In this document: piece after piece, positions 3,536-49,924 of the stretch | Position numbering within the stretch: the first letter of the stretch is position 1 | How the letters are laid out: the number at the start of each line of letters is the position of its first letter | Source: Aerococcus urinaeequi | GTDB lineage: Bacteria > Bacillota > Bacilli > Lactobacillales > Aerococcaceae | Direction of reading: 5' to 3' | DNA: 64,000 nucleotides | Assembly: GCF_001543205.1 (NCBI RefSeq) | Contig: NZ_CP014162.1 | Location: 1,054,001-1,118,000, forward strand | Notes under the pieces: model-generated | Databases searched by the model: none | What the model was told of the DNA's origin: nothing | Seen by the model: the letters and a program-made list of their open reading frames with translations, nothing else | Translations under genes and position numbers: made by a program

Positions 3536-4039
3536 TTAGATAACATCCATGTCTGGAAGTGGGTTTGTTGGGAAGTGATTGAAGTCATAAGTTGCTAATT
3601 CATTGATATCAGTCATGAAGTAAGTACCTCCACGCGCAATCATCAAGTTTAATTCTTTACCTTCTAAACCATTTTCGCTTAATAAGACAACGATAGCTGG
3701 TTTGTGCATAGCACGCATGAAACCTAACTCAAAGGCTGTACCGTCATCAACGTTTTCAACGTCATATAAGAAAACACCAGCGTCTGCAGTATTCATAGCA
3801 GATAGGTCGTTTTGGTAAGTCGCTACTTGCCATTCGAATGAACCAAAAATACCTTCTGGATCACGGTCAAAAGATGTGTCTTTGTATTGATGATCAAATG
3901 GGAAATGAACAACACCAACAGTTGGGTTCGCGTTTAAGGCTTTTGTCGCTTCCTCTACACGGCGAACTTGGTCAGGATTGAAAAAAGGTGTTGCTAGATA
4001 TAGCTTAGTGCTTGCTGAAGTATCTTTACGTTTATCCAA
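3536..4039 (-). CDS. nucleoside 2-deoxyribosyltransferase
   Basis: 167-residue cytoplasmic enzyme of the NDT family, which moves the deoxyribose between purine and pyrimidine bases in deoxynucleoside salvage. The N-terminal KLYLATPFFNPDQ, the central VFLYDVENVDDGTAFELGF (holding the family's acidic residues and nucleophilic Glu) and the length match lactic acid bacterial NDT enzymes. The start is a TTG at 4039 with an AGAGGT site 7 bases upstream; no ATG is available nearby. It is the last gene of a minus-strand run with the HD phosphohydrolase and deoxynucleoside kinase, which fits a deoxynucleoside salvage role. Confidence 0.88.
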   Translation of the reverse strand: MDKRKDTSASTKLYLATPFFNPDQVRRVEEATKALNANPTVGVVHFPFDHQYKDTSFDRDPEGIFGSFEWQVATYQNDLSAMNTADAGVFLYDVENVDDGTAFELGFMRAMHKPAIVVLLSENGLEGKELNLMIARGGTYFMTDINELATYDFNHFPTNPLPDMDVI

Positions 4040-4108
4040 TGATATAACCTCTTTCTTAAATTCAAAATGACTTGCTAATTATATTCTACAATAAATTATA
4101 CGAATTGT

Positions 4109-4774
4109 TTAAATATTTCCTTGCCACTCAGCCATAAATTGGTCAAGAAATTGTCGCATAAAAAGTGTCCGCTCATGCGCAATCTCTTTGCCAGCTTCTG
4201 TATTCATAGAATGTTCTAGTTTAAGTAGTTTTTCATGAAAATGGTTAATTGCAGTTGAAGGATGGTTGCGGTAATCATCCTTATTTTTCACATCAATCAC
4301 AGGGATTGTTGGATTATAAATTTCATTATTAGCGTGACCGCCGTAAGCGAATGTGCGGGCAATCCCCATTGCACCAAGAGCATCAATTCGGTCTGCATCC
4401 TGAACGTACTGGCCTTCTACCGACAACTCATACTGGGTAGTTAAGTTTTTTGAGTAGGACATATGTTGAATAGTATAAAGAATATTTTCTCGACTAGCTG
4501 GCGAAAAATGTAACGCATCTAAAAGTTGTTCAACTTCCATTTGGCTAAAAATAATATCTGAAACTAGCTTGTCATCAATTGTATCGTGTAAATATGCAGC
4601 GGCTTCAATGATAATCAAAGCCTCAGTATTACTTTCACCATAATCTGCTATATACAGGGCTTTAGCGAGTTTAGCAACTCGGTCTGCATGCCAGTAATCA
4701 TGACCAGTGGGGTCAAAAGCCATGCGTTCTCTTGCAAATTCTTGAATTTTTTTAAGTCGTATTACCATTTCCAT
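4109..4774 (-). CDS. HD domain phosphohydrolase
   Basis: 221-residue soluble metal-dependent phosphohydrolase of the HD superfamily (YpgQ/YedJ type). Metal ligands are visible as H in GHDYWHADRV near residue 25 and the HD pair in AAAYLHDTIDD near residue 63; a further Asp lies in QDADRIDALGAMG near residue 128. The exact substrate is not given by sequence, but its place between a deoxynucleoside kinase and a deoxyribosyltransferase suggests a nucleotide pool role. AAGGAG stands just before the ATG. It is separated by 28 bases from the kinase gene and likely cotranscribed. Confidence 0.82.
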   Translation of the reverse strand: MEMVIRLKKIQEFARERMAFDPTGHDYWHADRVAKLAKALYIADYGESNTEALIIIEAAAYLHDTIDDKLVSDIIFSQMEVEQLLDALHFSPASRENILYTIQHMSYSKNLTTQYELSVEGQYVQDADRIDALGAMGIARTFAYGGHANNEIYNPTIPVIDVKNKDDYRNHPSTAINHFHEKLLKLEHSMNTEAGKEIAHERTLFMRQFLDQFMAEWQGNI

Positions 4775-4802
4775 TTGCCCATCTCCTTAAACAAACAGTA
4801 TT

Positions 4803-5477
4803 CTATTTAAATGTGTCGGCAGTCACAATATCATTTGTGATCATAAAGTCTTTAATATCTTGAATTAAGACATTTTGATGGTGGGGATACTTGACCAAGT
4901 CGTATTTTTCCATATCAATGAACATCACTTTAGATTGATTATAGTGATTTTTCACCCAATCATCATAACCAGACCATAAGCGGTGGTAATAGTTGGTGAG
5001 TTCCTCTCCTTGTTCAAAGTCACGCCCACGATTTTCTATGCGGGTCATAACAGTTTCAAAAGAGCCATGTAGATATAGCATTAAATCAGGGTGCTTGCGC
5101 GGGATTTCGGCTAATTCTTCCATCATATTACGAGATAGATTTTCGTAAATTGAAAACTCTTCTTCACTAATACGGCCAATGTCTGTATTCACTCTAGCAA
5201 AGTACCAATCTTCAAAAATAGATCGATCTAAAACTGTTTTATCTTCTCTAGAAGCTTGCTTAATTGTTTTAAATCGTGAATTCAAAAAATCCAATTGTGT
5301 TAAAAATGGATAACGCTTCAACAATTGCTCTTCTGGACTAGCTTTGTAAAAATAAGGCAGCATAATGTTATCTTCAACTGATTCGTAGAAGGGTTTAAAG
5401 TCTAATTCATCTCTGATTAAATTTGTAACGGTGGTTTTACCTAGGCCGATCATCCCACCAACGGTTATCATTGTCAT
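4803..5477 (-). CDS. deoxynucleoside kinase (dAK/dGK family)
   Basis: 224-residue kinase that phosphorylates deoxyadenosine, deoxyguanosine or deoxycytidine using ATP. The P-loop GGMIGLGKTT lies at residues 7-16, followed by the substrate-binding ESVEDNIML region, the DRS motif in VLDRSIFEDWYF near residue 86 and the lid segment RIENRGRDFE near residue 150. The ATG at 5477 is chosen because AGGAGT lies 6 bases upstream of it on the minus strand; a start at 5507 would leave no ribosome site. Lactobacilli carry such kinases as paired heterodimers (dAK with dGK), but only one gene is present here. Confidence 0.88.
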   Translation of the reverse strand: MTMITVGGMIGLGKTTVTNLIRDELDFKPFYESVEDNIMLPYFYKASPEEQLLKRYPFLTQLDFLNSRFKTIKQASREDKTVLDRSIFEDWYFARVNTDIGRISEEEFSIYENLSRNMMEELAEIPRKHPDLMLYLHGSFETVMTRIENRGRDFEQGEELTNYYHRLWSGYDDWVKNHYNQSKVMFIDMEKYDLVKYPHHQNVLIQDIKDFMITNDIVTADTFK

Positions 5478-5598
5478 TGTGTAACTCCTAACTTTTTTTA
5501 AAATCATAAACCTTTAAATGAAATGGTTTAGCTAAAAAATCATTCTATACCTATCTCAGAATAAAAGGTAATTTGATATTTGTAAACCGATAAAATAA

Positions 5599-6288
5599 TT
5601 ACTTATATGGCAAGCCATCAGCATTTGTCCAAAGTACAAGCTCATTCTTTTGAAGACTCGCTGGGACATCAATAATTCGCTGGTTGCTACTTCCCCTAAA
5701 CTGTAAAGTTAGATCCATTTGATCTTGTAGGAAACGACCATCAACCAACACATCGATTAAGTCTAAGAGGGCAAGTTTATCTTCTGAATCGACTAGTAAC
5801 TCTTCAAAGGTATAACCTGACCAGCACCAAATATCTTTACTGTGCCCATAGCGGTCACGTAAAGCTTGGCATAGCGGTAGTAAGACATTAGTGTTTAGCA
5901 TAGGTTCCCCACCTAATAAGGTCAAACCTTGGCAGTAACTAGCCCCAATATCTTCCAAAATTTGATTTTGTAGTGCTTCAGTGTAATCAATTCCGTAGTT
6001 GAAATTCTGGACAACCCGGTTGTAGCAGCCTGGACAAGCAAAGAGACAACCACTGACGTAAATGGAACAACGAACACCTTCGCCATCCACAAAGTTATAA
6101 GCTTTGTAGTCAGCGATTTTTCCTCTAGACCAATCTTTTGCTAACCATTCTTTAGGTTCTGGGTTGTTGGGGGATTTGGGTGCGCGCTGGGCTCTTCTAG
6201 CTAACCTCTTTTGAATTAATTCGGCCCGTTTAATATCTTCTTCACTAAGAAAGTCTTCAGGTCGCGCCTCTTGCTTGTCTTCCACCAT
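5599..6288 (-). CDS. nrdG: anaerobic ribonucleotide reductase activase NrdG
   Basis: Radical SAM activase that generates the glycyl radical on NrdD. The iron-sulfur motif CLFACPGC (CxxxCxxC) lies inside YVSGCLFACPGCYNRVVQNF, and the glycine-rich LLGGEPM follows. The family homology begins about PEPKEWLAKDW; upstream of it sits a charged extension (SEEDIKRAELIQKRLARRAQ) not normal for NrdG, which is usually 150-200 residues. The reading frame stays open back to a TTG at 6423 inside the end of nrdD in another frame. I chose the ATG at 6288 (229 residues), but no good Shine-Dalgarno site is seen, so the start is uncertain. Confidence 0.82.
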   Translation of the reverse strand: MVEDKQEARPEDFLSEEDIKRAELIQKRLARRAQRAPKSPNNPEPKEWLAKDWSRGKIADYKAYNFVDGEGVRCSIYVSGCLFACPGCYNRVVQNFNYGIDYTEALQNQILEDIGASYCQGLTLLGGEPMLNTNVLLPLCQALRDRYGHSKDIWCWSGYTFEELLVDSEDKLALLDLIDVLVDGRFLQDQMDLTLQFRGSSNQRIIDVPASLQKNELVLWTNADGLPYK

Positions 6289-6349
6289 AGACCGTTCGGT
6301 ATATTTTTTAGGAATTAAGGATTTTTCCGTCTGTTTGGCATTTTCATCC

Positions 6350-8620
6350 TTATGGTTGGTTGTCAATCTGATCACCCCATACTGGTTCATTGTAGACAAT
6401 GGCATCTTCTCCGTCCGCTTCAAATGAGGTATTTACGCGACTTTGAGAGAGATGTTTTGTCCGAGATGAAATTTCTTTATGTCGTCCGTGTACCATTGGT
6501 CGTTGCTGTGGATTACCGAGGTAACCACAAGTCCGTTTAACGACATCGCAGGTTTTAGGGTTATTATTACCACATTGTGGGCATTTAAAGCCGCGGTCAG
6601 TTGGTTCAAAATCACCATCAAAACCACATTCATAGCAGTGGTCAATTGGGGTGTTAGTCCCTAGATAGCCTACCCGGTCATAGGCGAAGTCTCATACAGC
6701 TTCAAGCGCTTTAGGATTTTGTCTCATATTTGGGTACTCACAGTAGTGAATGAAACCACCACTTGCATATTTTGGATAGTCTTTTTCAAATTCAAGTTTC
6801 TCAAAAGGTGTAGGTGATTTGCGGACGTCATAGTGAAATGAGTTCGTATAGTATTCTTTATCCGTAATATCTGGTATTGATCCAAATTTTTCAAGGTCTA
6901 ATTCACAAAAACGGTCTGTCAGACTTTCCGCTGGCGTTGAATAGATACTAAAGTGGTAGCCGTAGGTATTTCCTAGATGATCAGCTTTTTGCTTCATCGT
7001 TTTCAAAACAGACAGGGTAAAGTCCTTTGCGTCAGGATTTGACTCCCAATTAGGGCCATAAAAAGCTGTACCGATCTCATATAAACCGATATATCCCATT
7101 GATATAGTAGACCGTTTCTGATTAAATAATAGGTCGACTGGCTCATCCTCATTTAACCTTTTACCAAAGGCACCGTGCATATATAATATCGGTGCATTTT
7201 CTGGCTTAGCTTCCTTTACCCGGTTGATACGGAATAAAAGCGCATCCGCCATAATATCTAGCCGTTCATCTAATATGCTAAAGAATCGTTCTTGGTTGCC
7301 TTTAGCTTCAAGTGCAATCCGTGGTAAGTTTAAACTGACCACGCCAAGATTCATCCGGCCACTATTCACTTCTTGCCCATGCTTATCTTGCCAAGCCTGT
7401 AAGAAAGACCGACAACCCATGGGTGCTTTGAAAGAGCCTGTTAATTCAACAATTTTGTCATACATTAAGACATCCGGGTACATTCTTTGCGTCGCACAAG
7501 TCAGTGCTAATTGCTTGATATCGTAATTAGGATCTTTAGGTTCAAGGTTTACCCCTCGTTTAAGGGTGAAGACCAACTTAGGAAAAATGGCAGTCCTTTT
7601 TTCCTTGCCTAATCCTTCGATACGAATATCAAAAATGGCTTTTTGAATTTCTCGCTCATACCAAGAAGTCCCTAAACCAAAGCCAAAGGTTGTAAAGGGT
7701 GTCTGACCTTGAGAAGTATATAAAGTATTGATTTCGTACTCTAGACTTTGGATTGCATCGTGGATATCTTTTTTCGTACGAGACTTTGCGAAGACCTCTT
7801 GTTTTTTGGCACCATCAATCCATTCTCTAGCAATAGCGAGATTCTTTTTGTAATTCATTTCTGCATAAGGCGCTAAGACTTCGTCTATGCGGTCAACAGT
7901 CGTACCACCGTATTGACTAGATGCAACATTAGCAATAATTTGAGCCGTTTGAGCTGATGCTGTTTGAATGGATTTTGGTGATGCCACTTCGGCGTTACCA
8001 ATCTTAAAGCCATTACTAAACATATTTTCTAGGTCAATCAATGAACAGTTTGTCATTGGTGCGTACGGATTATAGTCTAAGTCATGGATATGGATATCCC
8101 CTTTTAAGTGCGCATTAGCGACATGCTTTGGTAGCATTTTAAGGCCGATAGCTTTCGACACGATACCTGCTGTTAAGTCACGTTGGGTATTAAAGACCTT
8201 ACTATCCTTATTGGCATTTTCGTTCACCACATCTTGTGCCTTATTGATTAGCCCTTGCATACGAGTCTGGATGTTAGTTGCATTGGCAAACCTTTCTTCA
8301 GTCGCTTGTCTGTTTGCTAGATAGGTCTCTGCTATATGGGTAAAATTTTTGTCTTGTAAAACCTGTACTAACTGGTGATGAATAGTGGTCACCTCTATGG
8401 CGTCATTAGGGTTTGCTTTTTGAATATCGGCTAAATTTGCTAATACTTGGTGCAATATTAGGTTGATATCAGCTGTTTCAGCTTGTTTACTTTGACTTGC
8501 TTTTATAATGGATCGTTGTAATTTGTCGACATCAAAAGCGACCGTTCGACCATCACGTTTGTGTACTTTTACTTGGTCAAAGCTATCTTGGTGTAATATT
8601 TCTTGAACTGATTGGGCCAT
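6350..8620 (-). pseudogene. nrdD: anaerobic ribonucleoside-triphosphate reductase NrdD with in-frame UGA
   Basis: Class III reductase that reduces NTPs to dNTPs without oxygen. The ATG at 8620 opens a 642-codon frame with an N-terminal ATP-cone (KVHKRDGRTVAFDVDKLQ) and the catalytic barrel, then a TGA at 6692-6694. The same frame then runs on for 113 codons to a TAA at 6350-6352. That downstream part begins DFAYDRVGYLGTNTPID, holds the zinc cysteines CYEC and CPQC (662, 665, 680, 683 of a 756-residue product) and the radical loop VVKRTCGYLG (Gly 699). Relatives have Trp at the stop position. Without readthrough the product lacks its radical site and is inactive. Marked as pseudogene; a real mutation, a sequencing error and UGA readthrough are all possible. 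Confidence 0.85.
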
Positions 8621-8660
8621 GAATAGTGCCTCCTTACTATAACATGAAAAATAAGTTTAG

Positions 8661-8707
8661 ACACAACATATAGTGTCTTTATCATAATATTTTATCATAT
8701 ATAGTGT
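8661..8707 (-). promoter_or_regulatory. paired NrdR boxes upstream of nrdD
   Basis: The sequence acacaacatatagtgt at 8661-8676 matches the 16-bp NrdR consensus (acaCwAtATaTwGtgt) at 15 positions. A second, weaker copy at 8692-8707 matches at 12 positions. The starts are 31 bases apart, about three helical turns, which is the usual arrangement. NrdR represses ribonucleotide reductase operons when dATP is high. Confidence 0.82.
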
Positions 8708-8804
8708 TCCGTACAAGGGTAATCGAAAATGGTGCATGGGTCAAAAAGTAAAAATGAAGAAAAATAAACAATTAATGTATGATTTTAAAAAGCGAAAAAT
8801 AAAA

Positions 8805-8898: not shown

Positions 8899-10908
8899 TT
8901 AAAAAAAGTGCTTTTCTGTATTTGCTAAATTTCGGTAGTCTTGAATATCTAAGACAGCCTCTACTACCCCGCGGAATTGATCTTGATCATCAAAAGTGGC
9001 TAGGTATTCGATATGTGCAAAAAAATTAGGGCTAGAAAAGCTCATTGGCTGAATAATCAGACGAGCATTTTTTAAATCATCTAAAAGTTGCGCAATCTTT
9101 GGCCATAAGCGTGGTGGATGACAAAACTCAATGTCACGACCGATTTCCAAAGGTGAGCGTTTGAAAATCATCTGATCATAAGGCACCACGTGGTTGAAAT
9201 ATCTAAAGCGAAAATTTTCGTCTATATAGGTAATTTCAAAAGGCAGGGTGTTCATTAAACTGGTGAACTCAGCAAGGGATAGATAGCCATTTTCCAAGTC
9301 TAATGGTTGATCAATGGCCACTTGGTCTGGTCTAGTGAGCAGTTGATTGTGGTGACTATACCAATCAACCTGTACATATCCATCGGAAAATTGTATCGTT
9401 TCACTTTGTTTGCTAGTGAGATTTTCTTCGAGTCGTACTAAAGTTGTCAATTTTTTGTTTTTTAAATCTGCTTCATCCGGTCCTTTAACAGAACGGTCTG
9501 TGCCTGGGGCGATGTCAATAAACCGTTGAATATCCTGGACGCATTCGACGATGCCTAAGAATTGATGATCATCATCGAATAGTGGTTGATATTTCACATA
9601 AATCATTGCAGTACCCCCAGCGCTTGTTTCTTGGAACCAGTAGGATACAGCCTTTTCTTGACCAGATTTTAGTTTTTCAAAAACTGGGTGAATTGTTTTC
9701 CAAACACTGGCTGGAAAAAGCGTCTGTGCAGCCATCCCTATCTGACAATTTTCACGATATTGAAAGGGGAACCCCGTCTTATCTTGACAGGGCAGGGTGT
9801 AATTTGTGTATTGAATATGTCCTGCTGAATTGATAAAGGTAAGGGTGACTGGTATCCGGTCTAAGATAATCCGCATTTGGTTGATAGATAAGAATCCATC
9901 GCCAACAGGGAGTGGCATGTCAGGGTCAATGATCGCTTGCTGGTAGCTTTCTGTAGCTTGAAATTCGGGTTTGCTTTCCCAGCTGATGAGCATAGCGCCA
10001 TCAGGAAAACTGATTCTTTGGCTTTCAATGATGGCTTTACGTGGCTGGTCTACATTTTTGGTAAGTGGTGTAGTGTCTTCATGTTGGTCATCATCTTTTT
10101 CATCTGAACTTGTCCATGTACCTGTAGGTCGGATAATCGCAAAGCCGTAAATATCACTTTGTTCACTAACCTTGGCCCAATCTTGACTAGACAAACTTTC
10201 GGCTAGAATATTTATAAGAATGGCTTCCTCTTTAAAAATCATCTCCTTAAATTCATATTCAAAATCTGCAAAAGCTAACTTTGCTGTCGCTAATCTTTCT
10301 GTAAAATCTTTACTTCTTAATAAATCAACTTGCTTTAAAGCTGCTTGAAATAGGTCACGAATCTCATCATCTTTGGCCCACATAACTTTGGGTGGCGCAT
10401 TATAACCGTATTTTTCAAGCAGTGGAAAGAAAACCCGTTCTTTACGAGTATAGTGGTGTTCAAATTGCCCTAAGAGTTGGTATTGCCGCTTCAGGCCGTC
10501 TGTAAAGTCTAAGCGACTAGGATCCTCTTCGTTTAAGGCTTCTAAGGCTTTAAAAATATTGTTGATTCGGTTAATGCAGGCTCTAAAGGCCATGTTTTCA
10601 GCTTTAAATACCTGAACGGGATGATTTTCTTGTTCGATTTCTACAGCTGAATGACCTGTTACTTGGTCTTCAAACATGCGGGCATGTACGTTACACAATT
10701 TCAAGACATCTTCAAAGGTGATGTCATTATCGTCTTCGTAGATAATTTTTTGCTCCATCATGGCGATTTCAATGGCCGAAACACCGGAAAAGTGCTGGTT
10801 AAATGCTTCTTGTAAACAGTTAGGGTCTACGCCATGATGAAGTTGCGTCAACATGTCAGTAAGCACCTGTAATCGTTGTTCTTCTTGGTTAGTATGCTTC
10901 TTTTTCAT
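8899..10908 (-). CDS. DUF438 / hemerythrin-like / PAS domain protein
   Basis: 669-residue cytoplasmic protein. DUF438 occupies about residues 10-75. A hemerythrin-like HHE helical bundle follows (about 85-230) with candidate iron ligands in FEHHYTRKERVFFPLLEKYG. After an acidic linker come two PAS-like domains (about 325-450 and 520-660), both containing a DIQ(R/D) ending. This layout is known from anaerobe and lactic acid bacterial proteins thought to sense oxygen, nitric oxide or redox state through a di-iron or haem site; no output domain is visible. The start overlaps the end of the DUF1858 gene by 20 bases, implying coupled translation. Function beyond sensing or binding is inference. 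Confidence 0.85.
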   Translation of the reverse strand: MKKKHTNQEEQRLQVLTDMLTQLHHGVDPNCLQEAFNQHFSGVSAIEIAMMEQKIIYEDDNDITFEDVLKLCNVHARMFEDQVTGHSAVEIEQENHPVQVFKAENMAFRACINRINNIFKALEALNEEDPSRLDFTDGLKRQYQLLGQFEHHYTRKERVFFPLLEKYGYNAPPKVMWAKDDEIRDLFQAALKQVDLLRSKDFTERLATAKLAFADFEYEFKEMIFKEEAILINILAESLSSQDWAKVSEQSDIYGFAIIRPTGTWTSSDEKDDDQHEDTTPLTKNVDQPRKAIIESQRISFPDGAMLISWESKPEFQATESYQQAIIDPDMPLPVGDGFLSINQMRIILDRIPVTLTFINSAGHIQYTNYTLPCQDKTGFPFQYRENCQIGMAAQTLFPASVWKTIHPVFEKLKSGQEKAVSYWFQETSAGGTAMIYVKYQPLFDDDHQFLGIVECVQDIQRFIDIAPGTDRSVKGPDEADLKNKKLTTLVRLEENLTSKQSETIQFSDGYVQVDWYSHHNQLLTRPDQVAIDQPLDLENGYLSLAEFTSLMNTLPFEITYIDENFRFRYFNHVVPYDQMIFKRSPLEIGRDIEFCHPPRLWPKIAQLLDDLKNARLIIQPMSFSSPNFFAHIEYLATFDDQDQFRGVVEAVLDIQDYRNLANTEKHFF

Positions 10909-45753: not shown

Positions 45754-46079
45754 TATTTAAACGGTACAAAAAGACGTGTATAACTTAATAGTTTAAAAAA
45801 AGCTATAAGTAAATACAAAAATCGCTTACGCGCTGTCTAAATTTGTTCTCGTATTTTTGTATAAAAAATATAAAACCTTTAAAAACCCCTAATTTATCAT
45901 ATTCTATAAAAATTAGAAGATACAATTTGTTATTTCTTTTAGGAAACTTGTGAATAAGGATTGATAATAGTTCATCTCCACCCCTATACTATGACTAGAT
46001 TAAACACTATATATAGGGTTAAAAAATAAACAAACCACAATTTATTGTGTTTTTTAATAAAAAGCGAGGAGTAATGACC
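45754..46079. other. 326-base control region before nrdH
   Basis: AT-rich. Arms ATACAAAAAT (45813-45822) and ATTTTTGTAT (45853-45862) form a 10-bp inverted repeat around 30 bases. The promoter and NrdR box follow. A short palindrome CACAATTTATTGTG with trailing T residues (46037-46056) lies between the promoter and nrdH. Confidence 0.5.
45961..46019 (+). promoter_or_regulatory. nrdHIEF promoter with NrdR box
   Basis: TTGATA (45961-45966) and TATACT (45985-45990) are 18 bases apart. The sequence acactatatatagggt at 46004-46019 matches the NrdR 16-mer at 15 positions and would sit just downstream of the transcription start. I could not find a convincing second box at the usual 31-base spacing. 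Confidence 0.7.
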
Positions 46080-46319
46080 ATGACAATCACAGTTTATGCA
46101 AAGAGTGGCTGCCCACAATGCGTATTTGCTAAGAAATACCTTGAAGCTAAAGAGATTCCTTTTGAAGAGAAACGGGTAGATCTAGAGACCATGTATCTAG
46201 ATGAAGTAAAAGAATTAGGTTACTTGTCTTTACCAGTAATTGCAGACTCAACAGGAAACCATTTCAATGGTTATGTACCTGAAAAGATGGAAGCTTTGGT
46301 GGAAGCATGGCAAGCATAG
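46080..46319 (+). CDS. nrdH: NrdH glutaredoxin-like redoxin
   Basis: 79-residue redoxin, thioredoxin-like in function, that supplies electrons to NrdE. The active site is CPQC at residues 11-14. The C-terminal GYVPEKMEALV is typical of NrdH. The ATG at 46080 is chosen because GAGGAG lies 8 bases upstream; an ATG at 46074 is too close. It overlaps nrdI by 13 bases. First gene of the nrdHIEF operon. Confidence 0.9.
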   Translation: MTITVYAKSGCPQCVFAKKYLEAKEIPFEEKRVDLETMYLDEVKELGYLSLPVIADSTGNHFNGYVPEKMEALVEAWQA

Positions 46320-46711
46320 TTTATTATTCATTAACGGGTCAAACTAGACGTTTTATCAATAAAGTTCAAGGCTTCGATACTTATGAAATTTCATCAGCAG
46401 TAGCACCAGTGACAATGACTGAGCCTTTTATTATGGTGATTCCATCATATGAAAGTCATGTGTATGGTGACGTGATTGAAACGGCTGAAGAATTTTTAGA
46501 ATGGGCGGATAATGCTAAGTTATGCAAGGGCTTTTTTGGTGGGGGCAACCGTAACTTTGCCCAACTATTCTGTGTAACAGTAAAGGAACTATCTGCTGAG
46601 TTTGATATTCCTGTCTTACATGGATTTGAGTTCCAAGGATCTGCCTATGACGTGGCTAAGTTAACAGAGGAGTTAGAGAAAATTGACAGATACCAAGAAA
46701 TTAAAAATTGA
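46307..46711 (+). CDS. nrdI: NrdI flavodoxin-like maturation protein
   Basis: 134-residue FMN protein that generates superoxide used to assemble the Mn(III)2-tyrosyl radical in NrdF. The start IVYYSLTGQTRRFI is the phosphate-binding loop of FMN, and the GFFGGGNRNFAQLFC segment near residue 75 is the flavin-contacting loop. It is read in overlap with nrdH (13 bases) and nrdE (29 bases), so translation is tightly coupled. Confidence 0.93.
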   Translation: MASIVYYSLTGQTRRFINKVQGFDTYEISSAVAPVTMTEPFIMVIPSYESHVYGDVIETAEEFLEWADNAKLCKGFFGGGNRNFAQLFCVTVKELSAEFDIPVLHGFEFQGSAYDVAKLTEELEKIDRYQEIKN

Positions 46712-48881
46712 AAATACGAAAGACATCACTTACTTTAAGCTGAACAATATGGTAAATATCCCAACTGCTGACAAGCAAATCCAATTAAATAAAGACCGTG
46801 AAGCGGTTAGGGCTTATTTCTTAGAATATGTGAACCCGAATACGGTTTTCTTCCATACATTAGAAGAAAAATTACAGTATTTAGTAGACAACGATTATAT
46901 TGAAGAAGGCTTCTTAAATAAGTATTCTTTCGATTTCATCCAATCCTTATTTGATCATTTGTATAGCCATAAATTCCGTTTCAAGAGCTTTATGGGTGCT
47001 TATAAGTTTTACACGCAATATGCGCTAAAAACCAATGACAACAAACGATTTTTAGAAAGATATGAAGATCGAATTGCTTTTACTGCTTTGTATTTAGCAG
47101 ATGGCGATGAAGATTTAGCTTGGCATATTGCTGAAGAGCATATTGAACACCGTCTACAAATGGCTACACCTACCTTCTTAAACGCAGGTAAGAAGCGTCG
47201 CGGTGAGATGGTTTCTTGTTTCTTAATTGATGTCCAAGATAATATGGAGTCAATTGGACGAGCAGTGAATTCCTCTCTACAACTCTCTAAACGTGGTGGT
47301 GGTGTAGGTGTAAACTTGTCTAACCTTCGTGAAGCCGGTGCCGCAATTAAGGGTATTGAGAATGCTGGTTCAGGTGTTGTGCCAGTAATGAAACTGTTAG
47401 AAGATGCCTTTTCTTATGCTAACCAATTGGGTCAACGAAATGGTGCTGGGGTTGTTTATTTAAACGCCTTCCACCCGGATGTGTATGAGTTCTTATCTAC
47501 TAAGAAAGAAAATGCCGATGAAAAAATTCGGGTAAAGACCTTATCGCTAGGTTTGGTAGTGCCAGATAAGTACTATGAACTATTGAAAACAAATGAACCA
47601 ATGTACTTGTTTAGTCCATATGACGTGGAACGCATTTACGGTCAACCATTTGGCTATGTCAATATCACGGAACATTACGAAGATATGGTTGCTAATAAGG
47701 ACATTAAGAAATATAAAATCAATGCACGTGAGTTAGAGCAAGAGATTTCGCGTCTACAACAAGAATCTGGCTATCCATATATCATGAATGTGGATACAGC
47801 GAACAAGGAAAACCCAGTTAATGGGACAATTACCATGTCTAACTTATGTTCTGAAATCATGCAAGTACAAAAGCCATCTACTCTAAATGAAGATTTAACT
47901 TATGAAGAAGTTGGTTTAGATATTTCTTGTAACTTAGCTTCAACAAATATCACTGAAATGCTAAAAACGCATCACTTTGAGCAAGCTGTGGATACAGCTG
48001 TACGCGCTTTAACTGCCGTTTCTGATATGACATCAATTCAAGCGGTGCCAAGTGTTGAACGTGGTAACTCAGCCTATAACTCTATCGGATTGGGCGCGAT
48101 GGGACTACATACAGCCCTTGCTACCAACCAAATTCATTATGGATCAGCTGAAGCGCTAGAGTTAACGGATGCTTACTTTATGGCATTACGTTACTATGCT
48201 TTGAAAACTTCAAACCAGATTGCTAAGGAACGTGGAGAAAGCTTCTTTGAATTTGACCAATCAGCATATGCCGATGGTTCTTACATTCGTGAGCGTTACA
48301 TTGATAACCAAGAACCGTTCGTTTTCCAATCTGAGAAGGTCGCTAAGCTATTCGACCATATTCACATCCCAACACCGGATGATTGGGCGACATTAAACCA
48401 AGCAATTATGGCGGATGGGTTATATAATGCTTACCTATTAACAGTTGCACCAACTGGATCGATTTCATATATCAACGAAGCATCATCATCGATTCATCCA
48501 ATTGTGCATTTAATTGAAAACCGTCAAGAAACGAATATTGGTTCAATGTTTTATCCAGCACCATACTTGGATAATGATACTATCCAGTATTACAAATCTG
48601 CTTACGAAACTGACATGCGTCAAGTAATCGATACTTATGCAACAGCACAAAAACATATTGACCAAGGGATGTCCTTGACCCTGTTTATGCAATCAACTAT
48701 TCCACAAGGTTTATATGAATGGAAAAATGGTAATACGGACAAAATGACTACCCGTGACCTTAACCGCTTGCGTAATTATGCTTGGGCACAAGGGATTAAA
48801 TCGATTTATTATGTACGGACTTATACAGATGACTTCGACAAAGAAATTGGCGTTGACCAATGTGAATCATGTGTGATTTAA
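46683..48881 (+). CDS. nrdE: class Ib ribonucleotide reductase alpha subunit NrdE
   Basis: 732-residue catalytic subunit that reduces NDPs. Visible features: RRGEMVSCFLIDVQDNMES with the first redox Cys, GGGVGVNLSNLREAGA, the radical-site segment TMSNLCSEIMQVQ (thiyl Cys), a tyrosine pair in the C-terminal radical path (SIYYVRTY), and the shuttle CESC at the very end (DQCESCVI). A TTG at 46683 within nrdI serves as start; the next ATG (46749) would cut conserved residues DITYFKLNN. The NrdE class lacks an N-terminal ATP-cone, as seen here. Confidence 0.93.
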   Translation: MTDTKKLKIENTKDITYFKLNNMVNIPTADKQIQLNKDREAVRAYFLEYVNPNTVFFHTLEEKLQYLVDNDYIEEGFLNKYSFDFIQSLFDHLYSHKFRFKSFMGAYKFYTQYALKTNDNKRFLERYEDRIAFTALYLADGDEDLAWHIAEEHIEHRLQMATPTFLNAGKKRRGEMVSCFLIDVQDNMESIGRAVNSSLQLSKRGGGVGVNLSNLREAGAAIKGIENAGSGVVPVMKLLEDAFSYANQLGQRNGAGVVYLNAFHPDVYEFLSTKKENADEKIRVKTLSLGLVVPDKYYELLKTNEPMYLFSPYDVERIYGQPFGYVNITEHYEDMVANKDIKKYKINARELEQEISRLQQESGYPYIMNVDTANKENPVNGTITMSNLCSEIMQVQKPSTLNEDLTYEEVGLDISCNLASTNITEMLKTHHFEQAVDTAVRALTAVSDMTSIQAVPSVERGNSAYNSIGLGAMGLHTALATNQIHYGSAEALELTDAYFMALRYYALKTSNQIAKERGESFFEFDQSAYADGSYIRERYIDNQEPFVFQSEKVAKLFDHIHIPTPDDWATLNQAIMADGLYNAYLLTVAPTGSISYINEASSSIHPIVHLIENRQETNIGSMFYPAPYLDNDTIQYYKSAYETDMRQVIDTYATAQKHIDQGMSLTLFMQSTIPQGLYEWKNGNTDKMTTRDLNRLRNYAWAQGIKSIYYVRTYTDDFDKEIGVDQCESCVI

Positions 48882-48907
48882 ATCGTAAACGAGAGGAAAA
48901 ACTAGTA

Positions 48908-49924
48908 ATGACACGAGAAAATAAAAAATACTTTAACCAGATTTTGGGTGGAGAACCAACCAACCATAACGTTTTATACTACAAATCAATTGATTGGGAC
49001 CGGGTAGAAGATGCGATTGATAAATCAACTTGGGAAAAATTGACCTCACAATTTTGGTTGGATACACGTATTCCAGTTTCAAACGACCGTGATGATTGGC
49101 GAATCCTAACTGACGAAGAACGCGATGTAGTTAACAAAGCCTTTGCTGGCTTAACAGCTTTAGATACTCTACAGTCTGAAGAAGGGGCAAACGTTATGCG
49201 TGATGCTGTTCGGACACAACACGAAGAAGCTGTATTGAATAATATCCTATTTATGGAGTCGGTACATGCGAAATCTTATTCAACAATTTTTATTTCACTG
49301 AATACGACTCGTGAAATTGATGAGATCTTCGACTGGGCTAACAACAACGAATATCTTCAATATAAAGCACGTCGTATCAACGAAATTTATCAAAATGGAA
49401 CCGGATTACAGCAAAAGGTTGCTAGCGTATTTCTAGAAACCTATCTATTCTATTCAGGTTTCTATGCACCATTATGGTATTTAGGTAACAATAAATTAGA
49501 GAATGTCGCTGAAATTATCAAGTTGATTATTCGCGATGAGTCTGTACATGGTACTTACCTGGGCTACAAATTCCAATTAGGTTACAACCAACTTTCAACT
49601 GATGAACAAAATGAATTGAAAGACTGGATGTATGCGCTGCTATTTGACTTAATGGAAAATGAAGAGAAATATACCGAAGAGATCTATACACAAGTAGGCT
49701 GGACGAAAGAAGTTAATACCTTTGTACATTATAATGCCAACAAAGCCTTACAAAACTTAGGATTTGAACCCTTCTATCCAGATGGGACAGCAGAAAATGT
49801 CAACCCAATTGTGATGAATGGTATCTCAACAGATTCAAGTAACCATGACTTCTTCTCACAAGTAGGAAATTCATACTTAATGGGTGAATCAGAAGCGATG
49901 GAAGAGGATGACTACGATTTTTAA
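48908..49924 (+). CDS. nrdF: class Ib ribonucleotide reductase beta subunit NrdF
   Basis: 338-residue radical-carrying subunit with a di-metal (Mn or Fe) site. Ligands appear in FAGLTALDTLQSEEGA (Asp), EEAVLNNILFMESVHAKSYS (Glu, Glu, His) and KLIIRDESVHGTYLG (Glu, His). The start ATG at 48908 follows GAGAGG; the frame that opens at 48869 lies within nrdE. The operon ends with a strong terminator. In the absence of a working NrdD this would be the only ribonucleotide reductase visible in the window. Confidence 0.95.
   Translation: MTRENKKYFNQILGGEPTNHNVLYYKSIDWDRVEDAIDKSTWEKLTSQFWLDTRIPVSNDRDDWRILTDEERDVVNKAFAGLTALDTLQSEEGANVMRDAVRTQHEEAVLNNILFMESVHAKSYSTIFISLNTTREIDEIFDWANNNEYLQYKARRINEIYQNGTGLQQKVASVFLETYLFYSGFYAPLWYLGNNKLENVAEIIKLIIRDESVHGTYLGYKFQLGYNQLSTDEQNELKDWMYALLFDLMENEEKYTEEIYTQVGWTKEVNTFVHYNANKALQNLGFEPFYPDGTAENVNPIVMNGISTDSSNHDFFSQVGNSYLMGESEAMEEDDYDF

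What the first reader, a model, noticed from the sequence alone, without database searches (positions are those of the whole stretch)
6350..8620. nrdD broken by an in-frame UGA at a Trp position, with an intact downstream end
The frame stops at TGA (6692-6694) after KALEAV, yet the same frame continues for 113 codons to a TAA with no other stop. The continuation is well conserved NrdD sequence: DFAYDRVGYLGTNTPID, zinc cysteines CYEC and CPQC, and the glycyl-radical loop RTCGYLG. Relatives have Trp at the stop, one G-to-A change away. Either this strain has just lost anaerobic ribonucleotide reduction (class Ib nrdHIEF at 46 kb remains), the base is a sequencing error, or UGA is read through.
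Basis: partly seen in the sequence, partly recalled or inferred. Interest (0 to 1): 0.75.

Follow-up and report, generated by a model that had tools for sequence, protein, structure and literature searches.

The report
Freshly broken anaerobic DNA-precursor enzyme gene
In what is very probably the type strain of the bacterium Aerococcus urinaeequi, the gene for the oxygen-free enzyme that makes DNA building blocks carries a stop signal near its end; it looks like a real, recent loss of an ordinary kind, and a close relative has deleted the same gene.

Summary
nrdD has one in-frame TGA at codon 643 (window 6692-6694), then 113 open codons carrying the zinc cysteines and glycyl-radical loop. All 72 matches from 71 fetched loci have Trp there. 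The genome's length equals that published for A. urinaeequi CCUG 28094T, sequenced at 348x PacBio plus 220x HiSeq, so an error is unlikely. Recoding finds no support: RF2 is present, no SelB passes the cut-off, none of the 55 tRNA genes found has anticodon UCA, tRNA-Trp has a 5-bp anticodon stem, and 1 of 383 compared Trp positions is a stop. No in-frame ATG, GTG or TTG lies between the stop and the radical glycine. Best reading: a recent nonsense mutation that abolishes class III ribonucleotide reductase, leaving class Ib NrdHIEF. Against it: a paper calls the species facultatively anaerobic. New context: relative G003 carries a deletion scar of the same operon, G009 lacks the operon at that site, A. 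viridans keeps it intact; the 8 of 15 genus genomes without NrdD show no glycyl-radical match. Nonsense differences are about as common in the A. viridans stretch compared. An ordinary pseudogene within an informative decay series.

The parts
6692..8620 (-). Truncated nrdD ORF (642 aa): ATP-cone and most of the NRDD barrel; Cys403 aligns with T4 Cys290 (role recalled)
6692..6694 (-). In-frame TGA, codon 643; Trp in 72 of 72 matches in relatives
6350..6691 (-). Orphan 3' part of nrdD: 113 codons and TAA, with four zinc-site Cys (662, 665, 680, 683) and radical Gly699 (codon at 6524-6526)
5599..6423 (-). nrdG, activating enzyme, open reading frame intact (start codon not settled); overlaps the end of the nrdD frame
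8661..8676 (-). NrdR-box-like palindrome upstream of nrdD, identical in G011 and G007 (consensus recalled)
8692..8707 (-). Second NrdR-box-like site, 31 bp from the first, read by eye in the printed sequence
   Evidence: sequence printed
4803..5507 (-). Deoxynucleoside kinase (PF01712), possible salvage route
3536..4039 (-). Nucleoside 2-deoxyribosyltransferase (PF05014), possible salvage route
8899..10908 (-). DUF438 / hemerythrin / PAS protein next to nrdD; absent or a relic where the operon is lost (G009, G003)
46074..46319 (+). nrdH-like glutaredoxin (Pfam scan used 46077-46316)
46307..46711 (+). nrdI
46683..48881 (+). nrdE, class Ib large subunit (start codon not settled)
48869..49924 (+). 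nrdF, class Ib small subunit (start codon not settled)

Best explanation
This is a real and recent nonsense mutation in nrdD of A. urinaeequi (the genome length matches type strain CCUG 28094T). Translation ends at codon 643, so the product keeps the ATP-cone and most of the barrel but lacks the zinc site and the glycine that NrdG turns into a radical; without that glycine a class III reductase should not work (recalled). Shown: the stop, its absence from the other genomes compared, the open nrdG, the unchanged upstream sites and the open class Ib genes. Inferred: the strain cannot reduce ribonucleotides without oxygen and relies on class Ib NrdEF, which needs oxygen for its radical (recalled), and perhaps on deoxynucleoside salvage. 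It looks like an early stage of a loss that has gone further in a close relative.
For: Trp at the column in 72 of 72 matches; no internal stop in the 51 other NrdD-bearing genomes; hybrid deep sequencing of a genome of this length; normal UGA use, RF2 present, no SelB over the cut-off, no UCA tRNA in 55 of 55 tRNA places, 5-bp anticodon stem in tRNA-Trp; no in-frame ATG/GTG/TTG before Gly699; deletion scar of the same operon in G003.
Against: A. urinaeequi is called a facultative anaerobe in PMC12299170 (passage), although PMC5084872 calls the genus microaerophilic; neither tests this strain. The orphan part shows no clear decay: G000-specific residue changes are no denser behind the stop (3 of 113 against 11 of 642, p 0.45). 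PFL-like and NrdG genes are still open. A survey proposes that many in-frame stops in bacteria are read through (PMC7918605; abstract and the first part of its Results). No reads and no other strain of the species were available here.
Confidence: 0.85

Rival explanations
1. Sequencing or assembly error at this codon.
For: A single-base difference in one genome is the usual look of an error; no reads were available, and the genome paper does not state base-level accuracy (first part of the text).
Against: 348x PacBio and 220x HiSeq for the genome of this length; no excess of stops against A. viridans: 7 of 148 matched ORFs one way, 6 of 148 the other.
Confidence: 0.04
2. The UGA is read as Trp often enough to keep NrdD working (leaky misreading by the normal tRNA-Trp).
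For: The column is Trp in relatives; residue changes behind the stop are few and two of the three lie at variable columns; the species is called facultatively anaerobic; nrdG and the upstream sites are intact.
Against: tRNA-Trp has a full 5-bp anticodon stem, unlike the 4-bp form reported to promote UGA readthrough (PMC13092985, passages); RF2 is present; 379 of 383 compared Trp positions are Trp and the only stop among them is this one; replacement:silent ratio is higher behind the stop (3:1 against 13:38, p 0.07; 4:2 against 11:40, p 0.036).
Confidence: 0.07
3. The gene is split and the 3' part is made as a separate glycyl-radical piece that completes the truncated protein.
For: The downstream piece spans the rest of the NRDD profile; a spare-part protein (GrcA/YfiD) exists for another glycyl-radical enzyme (recalled).
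Against: No in-frame ATG, GTG or TTG between codon 643 and Gly699, only an ATT at 659; the first ATG is codon 709. PF01228 matches in the genome are the PFL-like protein and nrdD only.
Confidence: 0.01
4. The truncated 642-aa protein has been kept for another role, for example nucleotide binding by its ATP-cone.
For: The upstream 642 codons are open and show few replacement changes (13 against 38 silent).
Against: The same pattern is expected if the stop is simply recent; G003 deleted the gene.
Confidence: 0.02

Closest known systems
Class III (anaerobic) ribonucleotide reductase NrdD with NrdG (TIGR02487, PF13597; solved relatives 9d3x and T4 1h78)
   Same: Same domain order, zinc-site cysteines, glycyl-radical loop and neighbouring nrdG
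   Different: Interrupted by a stop 56 codons before the radical glycine
Weakened class III reductase of a laboratory reference strain, Pseudomonas aeruginosa PAO1 (PMC5645315, abstract and outline seen)
   Same: One point change cripples nrdD of a widely used reference strain
   Different: There the promoter is hit; here the coding frame, and no phenotype is known
In-frame stops in conserved bacterial genes (PMC7918605; abstract and first part of Results seen)
   Same: Isolated stop in an otherwise conserved gene, apparently young
   Different: That survey suggests readthrough for many; here no positive sign of it was found, though trace readthrough is not excluded

Membership tests
Class III ribonucleotide reductase NrdD (by descent) | Match to the NrdD family over the curated cut-off | tested here: met
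   TIGR02487, 594.3 bits against 326.35, read through one TGA; both pieces over the PF13597 cut-off when searched apart
Class III ribonucleotide reductase NrdD (by descent) | Zinc-site cysteines and radical glycine encoded in frame | tested here: met
   Cys 662/665/680/683 and Gly699, all behind the stop
Working class III reductase | Radical glycine in the translated protein | tested here: not met
   Standard translation ends at codon 643, before Gly699; actual protein not testable here
Working class III reductase | Activating enzyme NrdG next to it | tested here: met
   TIGR02491 over the cut-off, no internal stop
Nonsense pseudogene | Premature stop absent from relatives | tested here: met
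   72 of 72 matches have Trp
Nonsense pseudogene | Relaxed constraint behind the stop | tested here: inconclusive
   Fisher p 0.07 and 0.036 for replacement:silent in two non-independent pairs; p 0.45 for residue changes
Nonsense pseudogene | No function left (no anaerobic reduction) | not testable with these tools
   Needs growth tests or proteomics
Selenoprotein (UGA = selenocysteine) | SelB and tRNA-Sec in the genome | tested here: not met
   Best SelB score 188.7 against 242.25; no UCA anticodon among the 55 tRNA places found by RF00005; a tRNA-Sec model was not run
UGA = Trp genetic code | Trp positions elsewhere written UGA; UGA not used as a stop | tested here: not met
   1 stop among 383 compared Trp positions; 8 of 136 conserved gene ends use TGA; RF2 present
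Functional readthrough gene | Full-length protein made at a useful level | not testable with these tools
   Needs proteomics; no read-through-prone tRNA-Trp seen

The most novel reading that the evidence does not exclude
The UGA is a tolerated attenuator: the ordinary tRNA-Trp misreads it at a low rate, giving a trace of normal NrdD that, with deoxynucleoside salvage by the neighbouring kinase and deoxyribosyltransferase, is enough for slow growth without oxygen. The operon would be caught between use and loss, a state that relatives may have passed through on the way to deletion.
Probability: 0.07. Interest if true: 0.55.

Novelty: new member of a known kind. Interest (0 to 1): 0.3.

Why it matters
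It is a snapshot of an anaerobic function being lost: intact in A. viridans (G011) and G007, broken by one stop in the genome matching A. urinaeequi CCUG 28094T, reduced to a scar in G003, absent from the site in G009. If the stop is confirmed, this type strain would be a poor reference for the oxygen physiology of its species, as has been argued for P. aeruginosa PAO1. It also offers a simple test of whether class Ib reductase plus deoxynucleoside salvage can stand in for class III.

Tried and rejected
Recoding: SelB, RF2, tRNA anticodons, the tRNA-Trp stem, stop usage and Trp positions were checked and give no support. Split gene or spare part: rejected for lack of start codons and of another PF01228 protein besides the PFL-like one. 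A second NrdD: none over the threshold. Error-prone assembly: no excess of stops.

'Recurrent loss in the genus' as the only history: not accepted. The quick NrdD tree puts the A. viridans group beside Hutsoniella (support 91, below the 95 star), apart from other Aerococcus NrdDs, so gain followed by loss is possible; one origin is not ruled out either (1 change forced by starred branches) (L071, the same contig as L031, and the second copy in L040 were left out). The GltX tree needs at least 4 changes of the NrdD label, 2 forced by starred branches, and 173 of 500 shuffles do as well (G013 had no GltX match and is not in that tree). Whether the stop predates the split from G003 cannot be told: G003 lacks that codon; the GltX tree pairs it with G000 (87/99, not starred), but the neighbourhood DNA is nearer A. 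viridans (94.8%) than G000 (92.7%).

Literature: in the listings (29, 30, 52 and 53 showed 25, 25, 15 and 15 of 38, 56, 21 and 21 papers) I saw no title or abstract start that names this broken gene or tests anaerobic growth of CCUG 28094T; most listed papers were not opened. No structure prediction was run.

Full report
WHAT IS THERE. On the minus strand, nrdD starts at ATG 8620 and stops at TGA 6692-6694 after 642 codons; the same frame stays open for 113 more codons to TAA 6350-6352. Searched apart, the two pieces fall on neighbouring parts of one Pfam profile, NRDD 1-490 and 494-562. The upstream piece has the ATP-cone and most of the barrel, with Cys403 aligned to T4 Cys290; the downstream piece has Cys 662/665/680/683 and Gly699, aligned to T4 543/546/561/564 and 580 (roles of the T4 residues recalled). 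nrdG follows at 5599-6423 without a stop. Two NrdR-box-like sites, 31 bp apart, precede nrdD and read the same in A. viridans and G007 (consensus recalled, the second site read by eye).

IS IT REAL. The column is Trp in 72 of 72 matches from 71 loci, some loci being the same genome fetched twice. Of 60 genomes searched (G000 included), 52 have NrdD, and only G000 has a stop inside it. G000 is one contig of 2,013,339 bp, the length published for A. urinaeequi CCUG 28094T, CP014162, assembled from 348x PacBio and 220x HiSeq; G011, 2,199,877 bp, equals A. viridans CCUG 4311T in the same table (PMC4841142, first part of the text). The naming rests on these length matches. G007 is the Aerococcus sp. 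UBA6277 MAG, by its 82,626-base contig.

IS THE GENOME FULL OF BROKEN GENES. I compared 264 kb of G000 with 280 kb of G011 (mean identity of aligned pieces of 500 bp or more: 95.2%). Of 232 G011 ORFs of 100 aa or more, 148 had a match of at least 75% identity in the G000 stretch; 7 of these show a stop, two of them in mid-gene (nrdD codon 643 of 756; a gdpP-like gene, codon 323 of 690), the other five within 12 residues of an end. The other way, 148 of 216 G000 ORFs matched; 6 show a stop, the clearest mid-gene ones at 343 of 564 and 133 of 289, one at 275 of 822 in a partial match, the rest near an end. Each direction also has one split match. So the rate is alike in both. Of 383 compared Trp positions, 379 are Trp in G000, one is the nrdD stop and three are other residues.

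IS IT READ THROUGH. RF2 is present. No SelB match passes the cut-off. The tRNA search gave 55 places; ARAGORN on loci covering these places gave no UCA anticodon and a single tRNA-Trp gene, anticodon CCA. Its predicted fold has a full 5-bp anticodon stem, unlike the 4-bp form reported to promote UGA readthrough (PMC13092985, passages). Of 136 gene ends that coincide with A. viridans, 97 use TAA, 31 TAG and 8 TGA. Between the stop and Gly699 there is no in-frame ATG, GTG or TTG, only an ATT. Trace misreading by tRNA-Trp is not excluded.

AGE. nrdD of G000 and G011 is 97.5% identical. Replacement:silent differences are 13:38 before and 3:1 after the stop against G011 (Fisher p 0.07), and 11:40 and 4:2 against G007 (p 0.036); the two pairs share the G000 branch, so they are not independent. 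G000-specific residue changes are not denser behind the stop (3 of 113 against 11 of 642, p 0.45); two of the three lie at columns that vary among relatives, the third in a tail that only three rows share. This fits a recent stop and does not prove relaxed selection.

THE SAME OPERON IN RELATIVES. Of 15 genus genomes, 7 have NrdD; the same 7 have NrdG over the cut-off and are the only ones with a PF01228 match. Two of the 8 without are only 85% complete. G003, whose GltX is 99.8% identical to that of G000, keeps a scar: DNA matching window 8570-8728 (promoter region and first 17 codons of nrdD, 78% identical) lies directly against DNA matching window 5755-5492 (the end of nrdG and beyond, 81%), with a 26-bp relic of the DUF438 gene. 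Neighbouring genes there are 95-99% identical in protein, so the relics have decayed. In G009 (a draft, 91% complete) the deoxynucleoside kinase and P-type ATPase genes flank a gap of at most about 0.5 kb with no match to nrdDG or the DUF438 protein: either never there or cleanly lost. The NrdD tree leaves open that the A. viridans group gained its nrdDG separately.

WHAT THE CELL MAY DO INSTEAD. nrdHIEF is open at 46074-49924. A nucleoside deoxyribosyltransferase and a deoxynucleoside kinase lie just beyond nrdG. Kinase matches occur in 7 of 8 genomes without NrdD and 3 of 7 with it; the numbers are small and the genomes related, so this is a lead only. A PFL-like protein and a second NrdG-like protein remain in G000, so fermentation genes seem kept while the anaerobic dNTP route is cut. 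Against a full loss stands the description of the species as facultatively anaerobic (PMC12299170, passage); PMC5084872 (whole text) calls the genus microaerophilic. Neither tests this strain.

VERDICT. A real nonsense pseudogene, most likely without function, of an ordinary kind, made more interesting by the decay series around it.

Noticed in passing
G000:C1:1033800-1036100 (L166), about 20 kb before the window: A second mid-gene stop in the same genome: a gdpP-like gene is split into a PAS/GGDEF part (322 aa) and a DHH/DHHA1 part (342 aa), while G011 and G007 have one 690-aa frame.
   Followed up: partly
window 8899-10908 and G000:C1:351153-353129: Two DUF438/hemerythrin/PAS paralogues (42% identical), one beside nrdDG and one about 3 kb from the PFL-like gene, in G000 and also in G011; perhaps linked to oxygen-sensitive glycyl-radical enzymes.
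   Followed up: partly
G003:C1:771365-771605: Deletion scar joining the start of nrdD to the end of nrdG; G003 also shows no glycyl-radical match at all.
   Followed up: yes
window 3536-5507; genus genomes: Deoxynucleoside kinase matches in 7 of 8 genus genomes without NrdD but 3 of 7 with it: a possible salvage link, confounded by kinship.
   Followed up: partly
L040 and L069: L040, titled Candidatus Saccharibacteria MAG, holds two nrdD copies like those of Lactobacillales (mis-binning possible); L069, Timonella (Actinomycetota), has an nrdD inside the Lactobacillales part of the tree.
   Followed up: no
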